A stretch of DNA of 64,000 nucleotides from Nostoc carneum NIES-2107 (lineage in GTDB: Bacteria; Cyanobacteriota; Cyanobacteriia; Cyanobacteriales; Nostocaceae): the NCBI GenBank assembly GCA_002368155.1, contig AP018180.1:6814561-6878560 (forward strand). The letters run 5' to 3'. Each line of letters starts with the position of its first letter. Within the stretch, counting starts at the first letter, position 1. Under the pieces are notes generated by a model that worked only from the letters and a program-made list of their open reading frames with translations, made no database searches and was not told the DNA's origin. The position numbers and the translations under genes were made by a program. Shown here piece by piece: positions 32,031 to 58,574 of the stretch.

Positions 32031-33837
32031 AACACCGATTCAGTAATGGAGAAACGAAAGCAAATCAAGCTGATATAGAGTAAAAGGATGAAGGTAAAAA
32101 TAGAGCAAAATCTTATCAGGTAATGATTGTAGCCATTAGTAATGGAATATAGAGATTTAATCAACTCTCAAGGAAAAGTGCGCTCAAGTTTCAGGTATAT
32201 TCGATGTTACACAGATGCATGAAAGACCGAGAGTATACCTATGCGTCCAGTCCATTGGCATCCACCGACCGAACTTAACGCTCAAGAGCAAAAAATCGTC
32301 AAGCGGATCAAAAGAGCAAAGCTATTCACGTTCTTGCGGCAATACCGTCATCAGTTATTTGATGAGGAATTTCAAGAAGAACTGAGCAAGCTTTATGCAG
32401 ATTCTCCCAAAGGGCATCCACCAGTACCTCCAGCACAACTGGCATTAGTGACAATCTTACAAGCTTATACAGGAGCATCCGATGCGGAAGCGATTGAAGC
32501 GTTGCTCATGGATAGACGTTGGCAGTTAGTGCTTGATTGCATTGATTGTGAGCAAGCACCATTTTCTCAAGCGACACTTGCCAGGTTTCGCACAGCACTG
32601 ATTATCCAAGGACTCGACCGACGATTAATTGAGAAAACAGTAAAACTAGCAGAACAGAGCAAGGGTTTTGGCTCAAGGCAATTACGGGCAGCGCTTGATT
32701 CCAGCCCCTTGTGGGGAGCATCGAAGGTTGAAGATACATATAATTTATTGGGTCACGCGCTCAAAAAAGCGATTGGCGTGATAGCTGTCCAGCAGGGGAG
32801 GGGGTTGGCGGAAGTTGCACAAGATATTGGGGTAGATATGGTTGCAACTTCAAGCTTGAAAGCGGCTTTAGACTTAAACTGGGATGACCCAGATCAGAAA
32901 AATTTGGCCTTGGGGATTGTACTGGATGCTTTAGAGAGAGTTGAGACTTTTGTTCAAACACAGCCTACTGAAAATGAACATCCGCTACTTCGTTCAACTC
33001 TTGAAACAGCAAGACAAATCGAAACACAGGATGTGGAAGTTGATGCCAATGGTGAGGTAAAACTGCGCTCTGGTGTTGCCAAAGAACGACGTATTTCAGT
33101 TGAAGACGAAGAGATGAGACATGGACGTAAAAGCCGTAGCCAGAAAATTGATGGCTATAAACGTCATGTGTTACGAGATTTAGACAACGGAATGATTCGC
33201 GCTGTTGGTATTACCAAAGCTAATGTCCCAGAAGCATCAGTAACCGATGCGATTACTCAGGACTTACAAACACAAGATGTTGAACTTACCGAATTGCATA
33301 TTGACCGGGCTTACTTGAGTAGCTCCTTAGTTAAAAATCGTAGTGAGCAATTGAGTATATACTGTAAGGCTTGGGTCGTCCACAACGGTACAAAATTTGG
33401 TAAAACTGCCTTTGTGTTGGACTGGGACAATGGTACTATTTGTTGTCCCAATCAGGTAACTTTACCTTTTAGTTTGGGTGCTAAAATTCAGTTCCCACAA
33501 GAAGTTTGTGCAACCTGTCCTCTCAGAGAATCTTGCACCAGTTCACCACGCGGACGTAGTATTTCAATTCATCCAGAAGAACAATTATTTCGAGAGTTAC
33601 GAGAACGTCAATTAACCCCTATTGGACGTGCCAAACTCCGCGAACGCGTTTGTGTTGAGCATTCTTTATCTCATATTGGTCGTTGGCAAGGTGAACAAGC
33701 TCGCTATGTTGGTTGTCGCAAAAACTTATTTGATCTTCGTCGCGTAGCGGTTGTTCATAATCTTCATGTCCTTGCCAAAATTTTTACTCACACTACTGAG
33801 CCAGCCTCTACTTCTATTTGATTACTGAATCGGTGTT
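32031..33837 (+). mobile_element. IS1182-like insertion sequence, 1,807 bp
   Basis: Perfect 17-bp terminal inverted repeats (AACACCGATTCAGTAAT) bound one transposase gene, flanked by 4-bp CTAG duplications. It lies inside tnsC. The intact frame and perfect ends suggest a recent arrival. Confidence 0.92.
32241..33821 (+). CDS. IS1182-family transposase
   Basis: A 526-residue DDE transposase. The N-terminal part has the IS1182 pattern: PPVPPAQLALVTILQAYTGASDAEA, then DRRWQLVLD and FSQATLARFRTAL. The core holds ALDSSPL (first Asp) and the IDGYKRHVLRDLDNG block. A CATCPLRESC cysteine cluster and VEHSLSHIGRWQGEQARYVG (last Glu region) follow near the end. The stop lies 16 bp before the right IS end. 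It is full length, so the element may still be active. Confidence 0.92.
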   Translation: MRPVHWHPPTELNAQEQKIVKRIKRAKLFTFLRQYRHQLFDEEFQEELSKLYADSPKGHPPVPPAQLALVTILQAYTGASDAEAIEALLMDRRWQLVLDCIDCEQAPFSQATLARFRTALIIQGLDRRLIEKTVKLAEQSKGFGSRQLRAALDSSPLWGASKVEDTYNLLGHALKKAIGVIAVQQGRGLAEVAQDIGVDMVATSSLKAALDLNWDDPDQKNLALGIVLDALERVETFVQTQPTENEHPLLRSTLETARQIETQDVEVDANGEVKLRSGVAKERRISVEDEEMRHGRKSRSQKIDGYKRHVLRDLDNGMIRAVGITKANVPEASVTDAITQDLQTQDVELTELHIDRAYLSSSLVKNRSEQLSIYCKAWVVHNGTKFGKTAFVLDWDNGTICCPNQVTLPFSLGAKIQFPQEVCATCPLRESCTSSPRGRSISIHPEEQLFRELRERQLTPIGRAKLRERVCVEHSLSHIGRWQGEQARYVGCRKNLFDLRRVAVVHNLHVLAKIFTHTTEPASTSI

Positions 33838-50056: not shown

Positions 50057-50122
50057 CGGAGAGGGAGGGATTCGAACCCTCGTATACGTTGCCGCATAAC
50101 AGCATTTCCAGTGCTGCGCCTT
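50057..50122 (-). tRNA. 3' fragment of tRNA-Ser (GGA), attachment-site half
   Basis: On the minus strand, AAGGCGCAGCACTGGAAATG begins the match: anticodon stem CAGCA/TGCTG with GGA. A variable arm, T arm GAGGG TTCGAAT CCCTC and acceptor half CCTCTCC plus G follow. The 5' acceptor and D arm are missing; the sequence diverges past 50122. A tyrosine integrase gene begins 126 bp away. This is the pattern left when an integrative element inserts in a tRNA gene. It is not a functional tRNA. Confidence 0.85.
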
Positions 50123-50247
50123 AATAAGCTGTAAACCTGAACTGTTAAGCTTTCTAACTAAATTTACATTGTCAATTGTATCACTTCAACCAATCCTTCA
50201 ACCAATTGAGTTAAAATGCTACTACTTCAACCAATAAAGGACTGATA

Positions 50248-51471
50248 ATGGTAGCTTCAAAATCTGACTTCAAAAACTTGTCTGTAATGACCATGAAGAC
50301 CCAATACGGGGAAATGTACCAACTAAGGTTAAGCAGCAAACTGGGAAGAAAGACTATTGGCTTAGGTGGTGACAGAATACAAGCTTTAAACTTAGCTCTA
50401 ATGGTAGATGAGGAAATAAGCAGGCTGATAGCGTTGGGGGAGCTGATAGAACTGGACAGGCTCAAGGAATTGGTGAAACAAGAACAGGATAGGCTTAAGG
50501 CTAAAAAAACTGATGGTATCAGGTTAGTAGAGAAAGATGATTTAGCTGTTTTGTGGTCAAAGTATGTAGACTTTCACGTATCTATCAAAGCATGGGAAGA
50601 AACATATATCCTTACAACAATCAAAACTATTACGAATTTGGTTAAAGAATGCCCACATCAAAAACTAGAAAAGAAAAATGAAATCCTTAACTGGTTATTC
50701 AGCGATCCTAATAGAAATAATAAAACCTCAAAAGATAGATTTAAATTAATAGTTGCTGCTATTGATTGGAACAGCAAGCAAGGTAATATTCTGAGAAAAT
50801 GGGGAATAGAGTATAGAGACTTATTAAGCACTATTAATATTAAGTCTCATAAAAAATCAATCATTATTGAGGATGAAAATGTTGATACTTTCTCGATCGA
50901 TGAAGTATATCAAATTCTAGAAGCATTGAAAAATGACACTTATGCCAGATTTAAAGGTACTCATCAGCAATATTACAAGTATATATACTTCTGTTGGTTA
51001 ACTGGTTGTCGTCCATCAGAAGCTATTGCTTTGAAGTGGGAAAATGTGAGTTTAGAAAAAAATAGATTAAAGATTTGTGAAGGTCAGGTAAACGCTAGTG
51101 GGAAGATAATAAAGAAAGAAGGAACTAAAACGGTAGAGTCAAGACTGGTTCCAATCAATCAAGAATTAAAAGATTTATTGCTATCAATTCCACATAAGAC
51201 AGGCTATGTCTTTATCAATAGATTAGGTGAACCAATTAGCCAGCAAGCATTTAATGGAGTATGGAAAACATTGTTAAGTAGAATGGGGATAAGGTATAGA
51301 ATACCCTATCAACTTAGGCACACAATGATTAGTTATCACGCTAACAATGATTATCCGATCCACAAGCTAGCTGAGTTAGTTGGCAATAGTGCTGATGTTA
51401 TCCAAGAACATTATCTCAGGTTGGATATTGAACGCATCAATTTACCTGAGATCATCAAAAACTATTATTGA
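50248..51471 (+). CDS. int: Tyrosine recombinase / phage-type integrase
   Basis: A 407-residue integrase. The catalytic domain (about residues 225-400) has the first Arg in TGCRPSEAIALKW, the second in YQLRHTMISY and the nucleophile Tyr in QEHYLRLDI. The first position of the H-x-x-R box is Tyr rather than His, a tolerated variation. The N-terminal part has a Lys-rich arm-binding region and a SAM-like core-binding domain. The gene begins 126 bp from the tRNA-Ser fragment and points into the element, the standard arrangement for a tRNA-targeting integrase. Confidence 0.92.
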   Translation: MVASKSDFKNLSVMTMKTQYGEMYQLRLSSKLGRKTIGLGGDRIQALNLALMVDEEISRLIALGELIELDRLKELVKQEQDRLKAKKTDGIRLVEKDDLAVLWSKYVDFHVSIKAWEETYILTTIKTITNLVKECPHQKLEKKNEILNWLFSDPNRNNKTSKDRFKLIVAAIDWNSKQGNILRKWGIEYRDLLSTINIKSHKKSIIIEDENVDTFSIDEVYQILEALKNDTYARFKGTHQQYYKYIYFCWLTGCRPSEAIALKWENVSLEKNRLKICEGQVNASGKIIKKEGTKTVESRLVPINQELKDLLLSIPHKTGYVFINRLGEPISQQAFNGVWKTLLSRMGIRYRIPYQLRHTMISYHANNDYPIHKLAELVGNSADVIQEHYLRLDIERINLPEIIKNYY

Positions 51472-51875: not shown

Positions 51876-53309
51876 ATGGCTACCATGAGAGAATATTCCC
51901 AAGGAATGGAACTAGCATTAGGATATGATCTACTTACTGAAAAAATAAGAGCAAAAAGTGTAGAAGGTGTTACAACAGAGTCAGCTACTCCCTTTGATAG
52001 TCGCTTCTTTTGTCGAGAAGTTACTTCACAATCTCAACTGGCAGATTGTCTCGGTGTTTCAGCTGCTATATCTGCAAAAGCTAATATCCTAAATGTGGGA
52101 ACATCAAATTCTAATTTGATTGCAAACTTTGCATCTCAAGTCAGTAATACCAGATATTATTCATATTTTCTAATACAATTTTCTGTAAGAAATTCTGAAG
52201 TAAGTATTCAAGATCCAAAATTAATTGACAGCGCTATTCAGCTTCTAGAAAGTGGAAAATCAGAGGATTTTCGTAGAAGATTTGGAGATGAATTCATTAC
52301 AGGTTCAGTAAAAGGAGGGAGATTTATTGCATTTATTAAGGTTAAAAATGATACTGAAGAAGAGAGAATAAAATTATCAAATCAGTTTAATAATAATTTA
52401 AGTGGTAATAATATCAATGTTAATGCTTCTTTAGATATAAACGCTAAGTCGTCAATGAGTAACTTTTTCAAAAGTGTAAGTTCTATAGCAGAAGTTGAAG
52501 TCTATCAACAAGCTATTTCACCTTATTCTCAGCCAAGAAATATACAAGAAGTATTTAGTTGTTTAGATGCTTTTCAAAAACAAATGGAAGAAGGAAAGTT
52601 TGTAAATTATCAAGTAAGGTTGATAGATTATCATACTTTAGAATTACCATCAAATGCACAATTAATTGATATTAATAGACAGCAACAGTATATTGAAAAT
52701 ACACTTCAATATCGTTCCGAATACCTTACACAGCTTAACGATATTAAATATGTATTAGAGAATAACAATAAATTTGAAAAATTTAATATTAGTAATTTAA
52801 CTGATATAGAGAAACGTATAAGGCAAAAAGTTCAACAAATTGATAAAACGATTCAAGAATGCGTAAATAGTCCTTATTCTTTTACAGAAGTGAATTTTCA
52901 AGAAGATATTATAGAATTTAAACTTCCAGAACGTATTATAAAAAAAGCTATTCCTTTTTCTTTTAGACCTACCACAAATACTAGAAATTTGATTCCAGAT
53001 CTGATTGATAGCCTACTTGGTACTGCTCCTAAACAAGTACCCACTCTGACTAGAGAGTGGATATATTCGCATTCCATGAAACTGCGCTTCAAAAATATTA
53101 ATATTAAAAGAGTGATGATTCTCTTAAACAAACATTCTCAACAAAAAGACCTATATCACATAGTTATTCTATGTTTAGATCAAAAAAATGATCCTGTCAC
53201 TGATGACACGGGAAAGTCCATAACTCGTGAATATCTTACCGAATCCCTTGATAATGAGCTTACAGAAATATTTGCATCAAAAGATAGATATTTTATTGAA
53301 TTTGAATAA
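51876..53309 (+). CDS. MACPF/stonustoxin-like pore-forming candidate with a C-terminal TREW domain
   Basis: 477 residues from the ATG at 51876 (MATMREYSQGMELALGYD); a TTG at 51831 in frame is less likely. Residues about 8-30 (MELALGYDLLTEKIRAKSVEG) resemble the opening of stonustoxin-type MACPF proteins. About residues 80-160 hold long amphipathic strands and the core FRRRFGDEFITGSVKGGRFIAF, close to the MACPF signature Y-G-T-H-(Y/F)-I-T-x-x-x-x-G-G. After a helical region (about 260-350) comes a 100-residue C-terminal domain (TREWIYSHS ... SITREYLTESLDNELTEIFAS). The next gene carries a copy of it. There is no signal peptide. The MACPF call is by motif only. Confidence 0.6.
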   Translation: MATMREYSQGMELALGYDLLTEKIRAKSVEGVTTESATPFDSRFFCREVTSQSQLADCLGVSAAISAKANILNVGTSNSNLIANFASQVSNTRYYSYFLIQFSVRNSEVSIQDPKLIDSAIQLLESGKSEDFRRRFGDEFITGSVKGGRFIAFIKVKNDTEEERIKLSNQFNNNLSGNNINVNASLDINAKSSMSNFFKSVSSIAEVEVYQQAISPYSQPRNIQEVFSCLDAFQKQMEEGKFVNYQVRLIDYHTLELPSNAQLIDINRQQQYIENTLQYRSEYLTQLNDIKYVLENNNKFEKFNISNLTDIEKRIRQKVQQIDKTIQECVNSPYSFTEVNFQEDIIEFKLPERIIKKAIPFSFRPTTNTRNLIPDLIDSLLGTAPKQVPTLTREWIYSHSMKLRFKNINIKRVMILLNKHSQQKDLYHIVILCLDQKNDPVTDDTGKSITREYLTESLDNELTEIFASKDRYFIEFE

Positions 53310-53517
53310 CAAATATAAGTAGGTCGGTGTTAAAAATTGTCGTTATGACAAGCCAGGAGGCAGAAGGGAAAGTGATTTCAAGCAACTTTACTTTTCCTTA
53401 CATAGTTAGTTTTATTTGCACCGTTATACTTATAAATAATTAAATAATTGAATATTTAATTTATACTTTTAATTTGTTTTTGCTAAATGGTTTTAAATTT
53501 CTTCAAAATCCACTATT
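53310..53517. other. 208-bp gap inside the four-gene module
   Basis: An imperfect hairpin, GGGAAAGT...ACTTTACTTTTCC, lies near 53368-53398. The rest is AT-rich. It may hold an attenuator or an internal promoter. Confidence 0.4.
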
Positions 53518-53994
53518 ATGGCAATCTTGTTAATCTCACTTTCGATAGAACCTATCTCTTCATTTGTATTAGAAATTGCTAAGGCTCTGGGTATTAGTTG
53601 GTGGTTAGCATTCTTATTGATTTGTATCGGAGCTATTGGCATAGTCTATTTGGTTACGCTCGCTTTCAAGAAAGATTCCTTTTCTGCCTTGATCGATAGG
53701 CTGCTTGGTACTTCTCCTCAAAAAATCCCAGTAATGACCAGAGAATGGATAAGTGCATATTCAATAGAAATGCACTACAAAAATTCTAATATTAAGAGGG
53801 TAATGATTTCACTAAACAGCCGTCCACAAAAAGAAGGGCAACATCACATAGTAATTTTATGTTTAGATCAAGAAAATAATCCCGTATTTAATGATCAAGG
53901 TCAGTCCATTACCCGTGAATATATTACTGAATCTCTTGATGATGAACTTACGGAAATATTTGCATCAAAAAATAGATATTTTATTGAATTTTAA
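53518..53994 (+). CDS. Two-helix membrane protein with the same C-terminal TREW domain
   Basis: 158 residues. The N-terminal 50 residues form a hydrophobic hairpin (IAKALGISWWLAFLLICIGA...). The remaining part (from about residue 58) is a copy of the C-terminal domain of the pore-former candidate: LLGTSPQKIPVMTREW, NIKRVMISLN, HHIVILCLDQ, SITREYITESLDDELTEIFAS, FIEF. By eye roughly 60 percent of positions are identical. Thus two proteins join one domain to two different membrane-acting modules. The hairpin itself recurs in the next gene. Function unknown. Confidence 0.7.
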   Translation: MAILLISLSIEPISSFVLEIAKALGISWWLAFLLICIGAIGIVYLVTLAFKKDSFSALIDRLLGTSPQKIPVMTREWISAYSIEMHYKNSNIKRVMISLNSRPQKEGQHHIVILCLDQENNPVFNDQGQSITREYITESLDDELTEIFASKNRYFIEF

Positions 53995-54070
53995 AACCAG
54001 AGTATATGAGCAACTAGATATATAAACCGCTAGGTTTTTTCTGACTACTTTATTATTTTAATAATCCAAC

Positions 54071-54430
54071 ATGATAGCAGCAATAGTACCAGCAATAGTA
54101 GCCATTATCACAGCAATTGCAACGGCTTTGGGTATCCCTTGGTGGGTTGCTGCATCACTTGTTGCAATTGGAGTCATTGCTATAGTTTCTCTTGCAATAA
54201 TCTTGTTCAACAAGCTTTTAGAAATCATAAGAAATGCTTGGAAGAAATATAAAGATATTAAATATAGTAGAATAATACGAGATAATCCAATTCAAGATGA
54301 TGAAATTGTCCATATTATCCATATGAGCGCCGAAGGAGAAATCATTAGTGGAACAACTGTAAGAGGAAGACAAGTAGATGAAAAGATGAAGGAATTACAA
54401 AAGAATACTATTGTTAATAAGGAAGAATAA
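54071..54430 (+). CDS. Small membrane protein with the shared ALGI-WW hairpin
   Basis: 119 residues. Residues 1-50 form a hydrophobic hairpin (AIATALGIPWWVAASLVAIGVIAIVSLAI), matching ALGISWWLAFLLICIGAIGIV of the preceding protein. A basic stretch (KLLEIIRNAWKKYKDIKY) follows. Then comes a short soluble tail with VHIIHMSAEGEIISGTTVRGRQVDEKMKE. The tail is not the TREW domain. The gene ends at or just before the AAA+ gene, so coupled translation is likely. Function unknown. Confidence 0.7.
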   Translation: MIAAIVPAIVAIITAIATALGIPWWVAASLVAIGVIAIVSLAIILFNKLLEIIRNAWKKYKDIKYSRIIRDNPIQDDEIVHIIHMSAEGEIISGTTVRGRQVDEKMKELQKNTIVNKEE

Positions 54431-54473
54431 AATTAGCAATACTAATTATAAGTTAATATACGATTTATTAGAT

Positions 54474-55550
54474 ATGGCAAATAAAATATATACTTCTATT
54501 AAAGGACTTCCTAGTAAAAAGTTTCCAAATGAATGTGCTAATCTTACAAGTAAGCTCGATTCTTATATTCGAAGTTTTATTTTAAAAACTGGTTTGGAAG
54601 AGCTTGATATAGAAATTAAAGTTGCTCTTACTTCTATTTCATCTAATGAAAGCCAAAACAATTCTCATCCAAAAGCAGAATCTTTGAATGAAAGTAAAAA
54701 TAATAGTGATGAAGAGCCACTTTTGAATGTACGTGCACAAAAATATAAAGCAGAAGAACCATTATATAGCTTTGAGCAGCTTATTTTACCTCATGCTGTT
54801 AGAGACGATTTATTGAATGCAGCGGATGCAGTTCTAATTGATAAATTTATATTTGACAAGTGGAATTTGCAGAAAATTGAGCCGTTTCCACGTACAGTTA
54901 TAAACCTTTGGGGATCTCCTGGAACAGGTAAAACTCTTGCTGCACATGCAATTGCCAATCGGTTACAAATGCAAATTCTGTGTGCTAGTTATGCACAAAT
55001 AGAGAGTATGTATCATGGAGTTGGTCCTCAAAATCTTGAAGCTTTATTTTATGCAGCGCAAAGAGATCGGTCTGTTCTGTTTATTGATGAGGCAGATTCT
55101 CTACTTTCTAAAAGACTGACAGATGTTACGACTGGTTCTGAACAAGCCATTAACTCTATGCGAAGTCAGTTATTAATTTGTATACAGCAGTTTCAAGGTA
55201 TTGTCATTTTCGCAACTAATCTCATTAAAAATTATGATGATGCCTTTAAAACACGCGTTTATAGCATTCACTTTCCTTTGCCTGATACAGAATGCCGTAA
55301 GGAGATTTGGCGAACGCAATTATATTTGCCAGGTAATTTACCTTTAGAAGATAATATCGATCTAAATGAACTTAGCAAGTTTGAGGTTTGTGGTAGAGAT
55401 ATCAAAGAAGCTGTTATTAAAGCAGCTAGGATTTCAGCACTCCGAGAAATGCGAATAAAACGTTCAATGGAATCCGCAATAATTACTGCAAATGACCTGA
55501 TTAATGCAATTAAACTAGTTAAAGATAGCCAAAATAATATACCTATCTAA
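54474..55550 (+). CDS. AAA+ ATPase of the pore-former module
   Basis: 358 residues from the ATG at 54474; a TTG at 54411, overlapping the previous gene by 20 bp, is in frame and possible. A helical N-terminal region with a Ser/Asn/Glu-rich linker (about residues 60-85) leads to one classic AAA domain. It has Walker A GSPGTGKT, a pore-loop-like YAQIESMYHGVGPQNL, Walker B VLFIDEAD, sensor 1 VIFATN, and an Arg-finger site in FKTRVYSIHF. A lid domain follows. This is the FtsH/p97-like clade, which remodels or unfolds protein partners. There is no protease domain. It is the likely energy-using regulator of the membrane proteins upstream. Confidence 0.82.
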   Translation: MANKIYTSIKGLPSKKFPNECANLTSKLDSYIRSFILKTGLEELDIEIKVALTSISSNESQNNSHPKAESLNESKNNSDEEPLLNVRAQKYKAEEPLYSFEQLILPHAVRDDLLNAADAVLIDKFIFDKWNLQKIEPFPRTVINLWGSPGTGKTLAAHAIANRLQMQILCASYAQIESMYHGVGPQNLEALFYAAQRDRSVLFIDEADSLLSKRLTDVTTGSEQAINSMRSQLLICIQQFQGIVIFATNLIKNYDDAFKTRVYSIHFPLPDTECRKEIWRTQLYLPGNLPLEDNIDLNELSKFEVCGRDIKEAVIKAARISALREMRIKRSMESAIITANDLINAIKLVKDSQNNIPI

Positions 55551-55822
55551 AGGTATTCTTCGGAGTGTCGGATCAAACTTAAATTTTTTTACGAGTTTCT
55601 TCTTCCCAACCGCAGCAATTTCAATGCTTTACTAATCACTTTCTCAGCATTCGCATATCTACCTGTAGCAATTTACAAAAGAATAAATTGCTCGATTTCT
55701 TCACACCAATGAGAAATGCCAGAGTATCAATGCGATCGCAGCTTCCCTGGTAGTCAGTAAATTTCAAGCATTTCCAGGGAAGATTGCCAGTCTGTACCAC
55801 AATTTCAATACATCGTCCAGTT
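55551..55822. other. Gap after the AAA+ gene, with degraded coding sequence
   Basis: No intact gene. A minus-strand open stretch (about 55640-55820) encodes TGRCIEIVVQTGNLPWKC and more, without a start. It overlaps the direct repeat at 55723-55848 and is probably a gene remnant. Confidence 0.45.
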
Positions 55823-55848
55823 TTTAAGGCACGGAATTGGCGATCGCT
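55723..55848. repeat. Direct repeat, copy A (about 126 bp)
   Basis: It matches 58389-58517 at roughly four positions in five, from AGTAT(C/T)AATG to GCGATCGCT. The copies flank a 2.5-kb segment with the LAGLIDADG gene. Confidence 0.8.
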
Positions 55849-56361: not shown

Positions 56362-58116
56362 CTACGTTTTTCTACACTCAACACAGTAGTTGAATTTTTG
56401 ATCCCTTAAACTTAATCCGGTTCCTTGATAGTTGTGTTTTTCTTTACACAATTCTCCTAGCCAGTACTTGTCCACATCAATTTCTATCAAGTGTTTTCCT
56501 GCTTTATAAGCATCTAAAAACTGTTGAACTTTTATTAAATGGCGTTGTCCCTTGCATTCAACACAATCCCCACCAATAATTCTACGCAAACTTTTACCTG
56601 TTGCGGCATACTCATGCTTGTGCTTGCATAAGGTAGCAAGATAAAACTGGCTAGTATCTATTTCTGGAGCGACTATTTTAGTATGTTTAATTTTTGATAT
56701 TAAACTTTGTTGACGATTGGGTCTTGCTGGCTGTATTAACCTTTGTGCAACTTTAGCTTTCCTATTAACCTCCTCGCATTTAAGGCATATTCTATTTGAT
56801 AATCTTCTAAGACTATAGCCTGTACCTTCAAAATTATGTTCTTGACTACAAAGACTACCTAAATAAAATTTATTAATATCAATATCTGGACGTATAGTTT
56901 TAGTTTGCTCTATCCAAAATTTAATTGGTATTAATGGCTCCTTAACCTGAGAGTTAATTTGACCACATCTAATACAACTTCCATGTCCTACACGTCTTAA
57001 AGATTTACCAGTACCCTGATAATCATGCCCTTTTTTGCAAAGCCGTCCTAAATAAACTTTTGAAGAATCAAAAATATATACTTGAGTTTCTTGGCGTATT
57101 CTCTCAAATTCTTGTTCTTTCTTCTTTAAATGTTCTTGAATTTTGTCCCACTTTCGGCTCATACCAGGTATATCGAGCTTGAGAATCTCTTTAGCAAGGA
57201 TTTCAGCTCGATATTCTCCTATACAATAATTAAAAATCTTGTCTTTTTGAAAGACATCGGCAGTTTTGCGTTGTCGTTCTCTCCAATCATCAGTATAATT
57301 GGGAGCAATTTCATCACAAATTGACTTAATCCATGTCAGGCACTCAAATGTGCCATAGAAAACTATATTCAAATAACCATTTTTTCTAATGTGGGCACAG
57401 CCATCACCATCAAAAAAGCCTTTGATATAGGCAAGTGAACACTCCCTATCTAAATTATCTGGTGGTTGTAAGGTCAGACTTTTTCGTGGAGTAATATTAA
57501 AGTTTTTCTCTAAATCAACAAACCATTCCTGGGCACAGCTTACTGAAATAGAGACTGTAGGTTTGACATTTAGCTTTCTGCCATTGATGATAGATTCTTT
57601 AGCTTGATCCAGACTTACGATCCCAGTGAATTCAGTGTCACTAACGAAACGTTCTAATAGATAATGATCGCCTTGCGTAATAGATATTTTTAAACTTTTT
57701 GTACTGCAGTTTTTATGTTCACAAATACAACCATCAGCAGCTATAAATCCTGCCCAATAAGAATTGAGGATATTGGGTTCTGAAAAAAATTGCCTGTTGG
57801 CAGAATGTGTACAAGCCCATTGCACACCTTGTATACCTAAATCTCTGATTCTCTGTTGTACTGAATGTTTAGAGCGATTATTTAACATTGCTGCTATTTC
57901 TCTAGCAGTCTTAGCAGGAAAGTTTTCTCTAATAATTTGGTCTTCCCAATCAGTCCAAACATTCTTTTTAGGAAGATAGCCCATTTTAAAAGCTTTAAGA
58001 TGAACAGATTTTTCTGTCCTATGTGATAAAACTTTAACAACTTCTTCAAAAGGTACACCTTGTTCTAGCTTTTTTATCTCTGCAATTTCCCACAATTCCC
58101 AGATAGAGCCACCCAT
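56362..58116 (-). CDS. LAGLIDADG-type endonuclease with two N-terminal DNA-binding units and four zinc-knuckle repeats
   Basis: 584 residues. Residues 1-95 hold two SANT/Myb-like helix-turn-helix units (AREIAAMLNNRSKHSVQQRIRDLGI is the second). Two LAGLIDADG helices follow: YWAGFIAADGCI (about residue 120) and YIKGFFDGDGCA (about residue 231), each with the acidic residue needed for cleavage. From about residue 353 come four copies of a 35-residue unit, (F/Y)(Y/W)L(G/A)xLCxxxHxYxGTGxSLRRxxxxxCxxC, probably each binding one zinc. It is a free-standing homing-type endonuclease, not inside an intron or intein. Repeats at 55723 and 58389 flank it. Confidence 0.82.
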   Translation of the reverse strand: MGGSIWELWEIAEIKKLEQGVPFEEVVKVLSHRTEKSVHLKAFKMGYLPKKNVWTDWEDQIIRENFPAKTAREIAAMLNNRSKHSVQQRIRDLGIQGVQWACTHSANRQFFSEPNILNSYWAGFIAADGCICEHKNCSTKSLKISITQGDHYLLERFVSDTEFTGIVSLDQAKESIINGRKLNVKPTVSISVSCAQEWFVDLEKNFNITPRKSLTLQPPDNLDRECSLAYIKGFFDGDGCAHIRKNGYLNIVFYGTFECLTWIKSICDEIAPNYTDDWRERQRKTADVFQKDKIFNYCIGEYRAEILAKEILKLDIPGMSRKWDKIQEHLKKKEQEFERIRQETQVYIFDSSKVYLGRLCKKGHDYQGTGKSLRRVGHGSCIRCGQINSQVKEPLIPIKFWIEQTKTIRPDIDINKFYLGSLCSQEHNFEGTGYSLRRLSNRICLKCEEVNRKAKVAQRLIQPARPNRQQSLISKIKHTKIVAPEIDTSQFYLATLCKHKHEYAATGKSLRRIIGGDCVECKGQRHLIKVQQFLDAYKAGKHLIEIDVDKYWLGELCKEKHNYQGTGLSLRDQKFNYCVECRKT

Positions 58117-58574
58117 TTTCTATTCACTATCACTGGCAAATTGACAACAGTACTAATGTACACCGAACATCAAATCCTGTGATCCGCATGGCATAGACAA
58201 ATATGATGCATAGCATAGCAGAGGAAGATTAACCTCAGTACCGGAATGGAATACTCACTGGACTTTAGCCTAGAGTTAGCGCGTAACTCATCCACTGCTT
58301 ACCATAAATGTTTCTCCAAATAGGATTAGCAGATATAAATAGGTATTACATTATAAAAACCGATCATAGGATAGTTTATCTAATTACCAAAGTATTAATG
58401 TGATCGCAGTTTCCCTGTTAGTAAGTAAATGTCAAGCATTTCCAGGGGATATTGCCAGTTTTTACCACAACGTCAATACATCATCCAGTTTTCAGGGAAT
58501 GGAATTTTGCGATCGCTGATTTCCGGTATGATAACTGAATATGTTGTCACCTGTGCATTATTTAAGTAATCGTT
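58117..58574. other. 458-bp gap with direct repeat copy B
   Basis: Apart from the repeat at 58389-58517 it is AT-rich and holds the divergent promoters of the endonuclease gene and the HTH gene. No gene is seen. Confidence 0.55.
58389..58517. repeat. Direct repeat, copy B (about 129 bp)
   Basis: Partner of 55723-55848. Both copies end in a HIP1 site. Confidence 0.8.

What the first reader, a model, noticed from the sequence alone, without database searches (positions are those of the whole stretch)
51876..55550. Candidate new four-gene membrane-attack module: MACPF-like protein, two modular membrane proteins and an AAA+ ATPase
Seen: four same-strand, AT-rich genes within 3.7 kb next to an integrase. 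They encode (1) a protein with a MACPF/stonustoxin-like core (FRRRFGDEFITGSVKGGRF), (2) a hydrophobic hairpin fused to the same C-terminal domain as protein 1, (3) another hairpin protein and (4) a single-domain AAA+ ATPase. Known: MACPF proteins insert in membranes as oligomers, and AAA+ proteins of this clade remodel partners. Inference: a membrane-disrupting, possibly abortive anti-phage or competition system, in which the ATPase licenses or restrains the effectors through shared domains. I know no described defence system with this gene set.
Basis: partly seen in the sequence, partly recalled or inferred. Interest (0 to 1): 0.9.

Follow-up and report, generated by a model that had tools for sequence, protein, structure and literature searches.

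The report
AAA+ membrane cassette with perforin-like partner
In a cyanobacterium, a mobile island carries a perforin-like (pore-protein) gene fused to an unnamed 'handle' domain shared with neighbouring membrane proteins and encoded beside a AAA+ motor ATPase; the handle, membrane protein and motor form a gene cassette that also exists in other bacterial phyla and may let the motor control membrane-damaging proteins.

Summary
In detail: four same-strand genes follow an integrase. Protein 1 is MACPF/stonustoxin-like. Its C-terminal ~95 residues ('handle', CTD in the full text) recur in protein 2 behind a membrane hairpin (64% identical; a 300-nt DNA duplication). Protein 4 is an AAA+ ATPase with intact catalytic motifs. 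The reading needs revision. The four-gene set was found nowhere else, but its core was: handle protein, small membrane protein, AAA+. Of 65 AAA+ relatives examined, 51 have a handle gene upstream, in about ten phyla by record titles; 47 of those 51 also have a small membrane ORF. Tails of the small proteins are diverged handles (profile-profile 94.6%; shuffled controls at most 3.1%). No MACPF gene was found in the other cassette loci, and no handle in the MACPF loci. So a pore-former-like domain sits on a handle of a widespread cassette for which I found no description. The module lies in a 17.6-kb element integrated at tRNA-Ser, next to a Tn7-like transposon with restriction and Septu-like genes. 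Best mechanism (inferred): the ATPase grips handles and licenses or extracts membrane-embedded partners; the MACPF is a self-directed executioner. Anti-phage function is untested; neighbours elsewhere are only weakly defence-like.

The parts
50058..50122 (-). attL-like 3' piece of tRNA-Ser; second copy inside the intact tRNA-Ser(GGA) 17.6 kb downstream, outside the window (G000:C1:6882255-6882319)
   Evidence: 94% identity over 65 bp, same orientation; intact tRNA-Ser at L185:4754-4842 -; Rfam tRNA fragment 50065-50130 -
50248..51471 (+). tyrosine integrase at one end of the tRNA-Ser island
   Evidence: PF00589 1.4e-19
51876..53309 (+). protein 1: MACPF/SNTX-like domain, then helical segment, then C-terminal CTD ('handle')
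   Evidence: Profile to 9uj0 E 7.8e-14; Foldseek/VIA top stonustoxin on a poor model; CTD hit 2.8e-21
51876..52670 (+). MACPF/SNTX-like core, about residues 1-265, with signature FGDEF-x6-GG and amphipathic stretch 179-191
   Evidence: borders approximate
52671..52880 (+). two long helices, about residues 266-335
   Evidence: DSSP of model
53037..53309 (+). CTD of protein 1
   Evidence: HMM match residues 403-489 of the 492-aa ORF
53518..53994 (+). protein 2 (158 aa): membrane helical hairpin (residues 11-51) plus CTD (about 66-158)
   Evidence: AlphaFold model mean pLDDT 85.5, CTD blocks mostly 95-98; CTD HMM 2e-22
53002..53301 (+). copy 1 of the 300-nt CTD DNA duplication
   Evidence: 77% identical to 53690-53989
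53690..53989 (+). copy 2 of the 300-nt CTD DNA duplication
54071..54430 (+). protein 3 (119 aa): membrane hairpin plus diverged CTD-like tail
   Evidence: hairpin match to protein 2; tail family A8 vs CTD profile, hhalign 94.6%, E 7.1e-8
54474..55550 (+). protein 4: AAA+ ATPase (start corrected from TTG 54411)
   Evidence: PF00004 3.4e-23; Walker A/B, sensor 1, Arg finger and pore-loop aromatic conserved in 51 of 51 aligned; start from alignment

Best explanation
The genes are a local, effector-bearing version of a widespread cassette for which I found no description. Shown: an AAA+ ATPase is encoded with small membrane proteins and one or more proteins carrying a common ~95-residue CTD ('handle'), and in this strain a MACPF/stonustoxin-like domain carries a handle that is a DNA duplicate of the one in the neighbouring hairpin gene (direction of copying unknown). 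Inferred: the ATPase ring binds handles through its own N-terminal region and threads or remodels handle proteins by its aromatic pore loop, keeping hairpin and MACPF proteins apart or extracted (safe) or, on a signal, releasing them to oligomerise in a membrane. Protein 1 has no hydrophobic N-terminal segment (by eye; no signal-peptide predictor was run), so the target is most likely the producer's own inner membrane from inside: an abortive, cell-sacrificing response carried as cargo by a tRNA-Ser integrative element. The trigger is unknown.
For: Cassette: 51 of 65 AAA+ relatives have a CTD gene upstream on the same strand within 6.5 kb, and 47 of those 51 also a small TM ORF. Specificity: CTD profile 0 hits in 24 loci of mostly other AAA+ families (1769 ORFs); in cyanobacteria 4 of 386 genomes, own included, the other three lying in cassettes (L015, L016, L160 = L042). 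CTD on another large protein: Hsp70-TPR-CTD in a cassette on Planktothrix plasmid p1. TM-protein tails homologous to CTD. AAA+ motifs intact in 51 of 51. MACPF. Duplicated CTD DNA. Mobile island; beside a Tn7-like element with type I RM and Septu-like genes; L030 cassette 181 bp after a tnsAB-tnsC-tniQ-like set (named by eye).
Against: No experiment. CTD-AAA+ binding is inferred from co-occurrence alone. 14 of the 65 AAA+ relatives show no CTD gene (four of these start within 900 bases of a contig end). Neighbours of the cassette elsewhere include radical-SAM, RuBisCO and chorismate synthase genes and only a few known defence genes, without a matched control, so a defence role of the core is not demonstrated. 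The MACPF model is poor (pLDDT 49.6), and its structure alignment to 9uj0 itself is bad (rmsd 14.8). Pfam MACPF matches only 2 of 9 relatives, weakly, and not the window protein. The MACPF-CTD fusion is a single case. The 209-bp gap between genes 1 and 2 leaves co-transcription open.
Confidence: 0.45

Rival explanations
1. The AAA+/CTD/TM core is a housekeeping-type membrane-protein remodelling or extraction machine (Msp1-like in action), and the MACPF-CTD is a recruited structural or export substrate, not a suicide effector.
For: Neighbours include ordinary metabolic genes and, in Clostridia, radical-SAM/SPASM and Sel1/M48-like genes; no toxin family stands out in the listed neighbour families (25 of 133 Pfam families shown); AAA+ pore loop and profile matches to PAN, CDC48 and FtsH fit substrate threading.
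Against: Sparse presence (4 of 386 cyanobacterial genomes, own included), plasmid and island locations and about ten phyla: a mobile pattern unusual for housekeeping.
Confidence: 0.3
2. The MACPF protein is a competition toxin aimed at other cells or grazers; the CTD and hairpin proteins are its membrane anchor or immunity, and the AAA+ disassembles pores in the producer.
For: Some MACPF relatives lie in toxin-like settings: beside helical proteins that look ClyA/HBL-like and a lectin-like repeat (L017, recognised by eye), or with a crystallin-like C-terminus (L165); closest solved relative is the Aegerolysin-L pore.
Against: No export genes among the seven window proteins scanned; cassettes in which no MACPF was found exist in about ten phyla, so the core cannot be primarily immunity to it.
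Confidence: 0.17
3. The MACPF-CTD fusion is a chance recombination product without function in a decaying island.
For: Single case; the CTD copies are a DNA duplication.
Against: All four frames are open; the MACPF signature and both CTD copies are recognisable; the copies have diverged to 77% nt and 64% aa identity, so the fusion is not new and has stayed open.
Confidence: 0.08

Closest known systems
MACPF/CDC/stonustoxin (SNTX) superfamily; Aegerolysin-L pore (PDB 9uj0), stonustoxin (4wvm)
   Same: Protein 1 residues ~1-340: signature, profile match 7.8e-14 to 9uj0, stonustoxin first in Foldseek and VIA, helical region behind the core.
   Different: C-terminus is the CTD; encoded in an AAA+ cassette; no hydrophobic N-terminus (by eye); pore formation unknown.
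IetAS anti-phage system (IetA AAA+ with IetS subtilisin-like protease; partner recalled)
   Same: AAA+ is nearest to IetA among PADLOC models (3.4e-21); NCBIfam IteA 1.7e-21.
   Different: 76.8 bits against a cut-off of 510; no S8 protease among seven window proteins scanned; partners are CTD and TM proteins.
MoxR-vWA ternary conflict systems (Kaur et al. 2020, PMC7159879; 12 passages seen)
   Same: An AAA+ chaperone is proposed there to set the threshold for variable effectors.
   Different: Here PF00004 AAA and no vWA; MACPF, perforin and hairpin have 0 occurrences each in that text.
TRIP13/Pch2 with HORMA in CBASS (recalled; PADLOC TRIP13 7.8e-11)
   Same: AAA+ remodeller controlling an effector.
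   Different: No HORMA or CD-NTase match among the proteins scanned.
Msp1/ATAD1 (recalled, compared by no call)
   Same: Proposed action: a AAA+ extracting small membrane proteins by pore-loop threading.
   Different: No membrane anchor expected here; partners share a dedicated domain.

Membership tests
MACPF/CDC/SNTX superfamily | Signature [YF]-G-x-x-[FY]-x6-G-G (recalled) | tested here: met
   FGDEF-ITGSVK-GG in protein 1
MACPF/CDC/SNTX superfamily | Sequence homology to solved members | tested here: met
   A2 profile vs 9uj0 7.8e-14 (title 'Structure of Aegerolysin-L pore'); A6 profile 1.1e-7, with stonustoxin alpha only 0.048; single sequence only 0.01. That 9uj0 is itself a MACPF was not tested apart.
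MACPF/CDC/SNTX superfamily | Pfam PF01823 match above its cut-off | tested here: inconclusive
   2 of 9 relatives match (best E 0.0024), the window protein not; L165 full length 17.5 bits, cut-off 21.5
MACPF/CDC/SNTX superfamily | Bent sheet with two helical clusters (fold) | tested here: inconclusive
MACPF/CDC/SNTX superfamily | Oligomeric membrane pore | not testable with these tools
   Needs biochemistry; a hint only from the amphipathic stretch 179-191
IetAS | IetA equivalog score | tested here: not met
   76.8 bits vs 510
IetAS | Adjacent IetS S8 protease | tested here: not met
   No S8 match in the seven window proteins at 50.2-58.1 kb
MoxR-vWA ternary systems | MoxR AAA+ plus vWA protein | tested here: not met
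   PF00004 AAA, no vWA among the seven; protein 1 shows only a 0.038 match to bpMoxR
TRIP13/HORMA CBASS | HORMA protein and CD-NTase | tested here: not met
   None among the four proteins or seven
AAA+ CTD-TM cassette (proposed here) | CTD gene upstream of this AAA+ | tested here: met
   Proteins 1 and 2; 51 of 65 elsewhere

The most novel reading that the evidence does not exclude
An unrecognised bacterial immune or self-killing system present in about ten phyla, in which one AAA+ motor controls interchangeable membrane-active partners through a common C-terminal handle domain. The MACPF-handle protein would be, to my knowledge, the first intracellular, ATPase-licensed perforin-type executioner in prokaryotes, and the duplicated handle DNA shows how new effectors are grafted on.
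Probability: 0.3. Interest if true: 0.92.

Novelty: categorically new. Interest (0 to 1): 0.76.

Why it matters
The CTD has no credible Pfam match (65 members) and no clear fold match, and none of the module's proteins meets a PADLOC- or NCBIfam-defined family, although the cassette occurs in about ten phyla. If the ATPase controls membrane insertion of handle proteins, that is a new regulatory principle for membrane-active effectors and gives baits (CTD, AAA+) for finding more of them. It would also tie a bacterial MACPF protein to a regulated switch. A published description was looked for in ten searches (listings seen, plus passages of three papers) and none was found; most subscription papers and bioRxiv preprints are not in that library.
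Full report
What is there. The window is part of an unnamed cyanobacterial genome. Four + strand genes follow a tyrosine integrase: 51876-53309 (477 aa), 53518-53994 (158 aa), 54071-54430 (119 aa) and a AAA+ gene ending at 55550. Alignment with relatives suggests that the AAA+ protein begins at the ATG at 54474 rather than at the TTG at 54411. GC is 0.302 at 52-54 kb and 0.347 at 54-56 kb; the other 30 steps of the window are 0.335-0.458.

A widespread core. The CTD led to other cyanobacteria, in which a CTD protein (often two CTDs in tandem), a 104-124-residue membrane protein and this AAA+ follow each other (L015, L016, L028, L029, L030; L031 shows no middle gene in the ORF list). A scan of the genome-contig collection with the AAA+ profile found 126 relatives, of which the tool kept the best 80 as 79 loci. 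I took 65 as the same subfamily (L032-L095 and L107, 38-62% identity) and left 14 (37% or less) aside. 51 of these 65 have a CTD gene upstream on the same strand within 6.5 kb; four of the 14 without begin less than 900 bases from a contig end (L048, L058, L061, L062). In 47 of the 51 there is also a separate ORF of 60-230 aa with a predicted TM segment in or just before the run (mechanical ORFs, hydropathy only). By record titles (phyla assigned by me) the 51 lie in Cyanobacteria, Desulfobacterota (Geobacteraceae), Pseudomonadota (one Thiomargarita), Myxococcota (one), Synergistota, Riflebacteria (one), Planctomycetota, Actinomycetota (two), Spirochaetota and Bacillota; many are MAGs. Control: the CTD profile has 0 hits in 24 loci of mostly other AAA+ types (L096-L119, 1769 ORFs; L107 is among these). 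In cyanobacteria the CTD is rare: 4 of 386 genomes, own included; the other three loci are cassettes (L015, L016; L160, whose CTD and hairpin proteins are those of L042).

The tails of the small membrane proteins are diverged CTDs. A profile of 28 tails (27 of the 51 found, chosen by hand with most of the divergent clostridial ones left out, plus window protein 3) aligns with the CTD profile A4 over 78 columns (hhalign 96.7%, E 4.3e-10); with the one tail-type row removed from A4, 94.6%, E 7.1e-8 over 77 columns, against at most 3.1% in ten column-shuffled controls. The iterated CTD profile also picks up tails directly in L052, L057, L064, L067, L087 and L093 and in L168. On its own, protein 3 is not hit by the CTD profile; its place in the tail family rests on the alignment. 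If that is right, all three non-ATPase proteins of this module carry one domain family.

The ATPase looks competent. In 51 sequences (the window and 50 of the 51 cassettes; L056 gave no single ORF), the Walker A G-x-x-GTGK residues, Walker B LFIDEAD, sensor-1 N270, R282 and GR328-329 are conserved in 51 of 51, and pore-loop position 201 is Y or F in 51 of 51 (motif names recalled). The nearest named defence ATPase is IetA/IteA, far below the membership score (76.8 vs 510 bits).

The MACPF is a graft. The CTD profile has 0 hits in 11 loci fetched for MACPF matches (1108 ORFs). MACPF relatives are themselves rare (5 of 386 cyanobacterial genomes, own included) and several carry other C-termini: GUN4 (L011, L013) or a crystallin-like part (L165). 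The CTD is also grafted elsewhere: in Planktothrix agardhii plasmid p1 it ends a 699-residue Hsp70-TPR protein in a run with five small proteins and the AAA+, and CTDs with a TM helix of their own recur (e.g. L055, L060, L067, L087, L093).

Mobile setting. The 3' piece of a tRNA-Ser gene lies at 50058-50122, and 17.6 kb further on, outside the window, a 94% copy lies in an intact tRNA-Ser(GGA). An integrase at one end and a Prim-Pol/PriCT_2/DUF3987 protein near the other make this an integrative element; the module is its cargo. Directly to the left lies a separate Tn7-like element, about 28347-49381 by its inverted ends, with 5-bp flanks TTTTG on both sides (read): TnsAB (TnsA part just under its Pfam cut-off), TniQ, a second TniQ and tnsC pieces by eye, a type I RM set and Septu-like PtuA/PtuB genes. 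In a genus-mate the cassette (L030) begins 181 bp after a similar tnsAB-tnsC-tniQ set (named by eye). These facts fit cargo on mobile elements. They do not prove anti-phage function: neighbours of the 51 cassettes are mixed, with single Cas1, Cas6, type II RM and PD-T4-6 matches, four Uma2 and two NB-ARC, but also metabolic genes and, in Clostridia, radical-SAM/SPASM genes, and no matched control was available.

How it probably works. Shown: co-encoding, common handle, intact motor motifs, pore-former family, duplication of the handle. Inferred: motor-handle contact; threading or release; self-targeting; abortive outcome. The handle sits at the C-terminus of its carriers (tandem first copies apart) behind unrelated front parts, as expected of a docking module recognised by a common partner, and the AAA+ is the partner gene by which these loci were found or, in the CTD-first searches, the one that recurs. 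I give this mechanism 0.45, membrane quality control 0.30, outward competition 0.17, and decay 0.08.

Known systems. Not IetAS, not MoxR-vWA, not TRIP13-HORMA (membership table). In the Kaur et al. 2020 text MACPF, perforin and hairpin have 0 occurrences (passages seen); in the 2021 death-domain paper perforin occurs once, for T cells (passages seen). The BREX paper that came up for 'membrane attack complex' has the phrase only in a reference title (passage seen).

Noticed in passing
window 28347-49381: A Tn7-like transposon with inverted ends and 5-bp flanks TTTTG just after tRNA-Ala(GGC): TniQ genes, tnsC pieces with an IS-type transposase ORF between them (32241-33821, by eye), TnsAB, type I RM and Septu-like PtuA/PtuB cargo.
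   Followed up: partly
L168 1077-10753 (Planktothrix agardhii plasmid p1): Hsp70-TPR-CTD protein, five small membrane/CTD-like proteins, AAA+, then a HerA/DUF87-type ATPase and a weakly matched zinc metallopeptidase in one run: perhaps an extended form of the system.
   Followed up: partly
L068-L088 (Bacillota): Several of these cassettes have a same-strand 500-650-aa gene upstream (Sel1 or M48-like in 3 of 6 scanned) and a radical-SAM/SPASM/PqqD gene downstream in 2 of 4 scanned.
   Followed up: partly
L017 4120-9251 (G101): A 666-aa MACPF relative next to two long helical proteins that look ClyA/HBL-like, one with a lectin-like repeat (by eye): a possible multi-component toxin locus.
   Followed up: no
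L011, L013: MACPF fused to a GUN4 (tetrapyrrole-binding) domain in two cyanobacteria; a third such gene in G682 is interrupted by an insertion sequence.
   Followed up: no
L067 6330-6959, L093 6088-6714: DUF1232-membrane-CTD-like fusion in a spirochaete cassette (DUF1232 1.7e-13 in L067; CTD tail hits 3.2e-12 in L067 and 1.7e-13 in L093).
   Followed up: no
window 55714-55838 and 58382-58506: 125-nt direct repeat (84%) flanking a LAGLIDADG-type gene (56362-58116, - strand) right after the module; origin unclear.
   Followed up: no
L169 2439-4870, L170 3932-6353: More distant AAA+ relatives (38-40%) on Synechococcus and Moraxella plasmids also sit with small proteins, some with a TM segment, but without a detectable CTD: the family may be wider.
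   Followed up: partly
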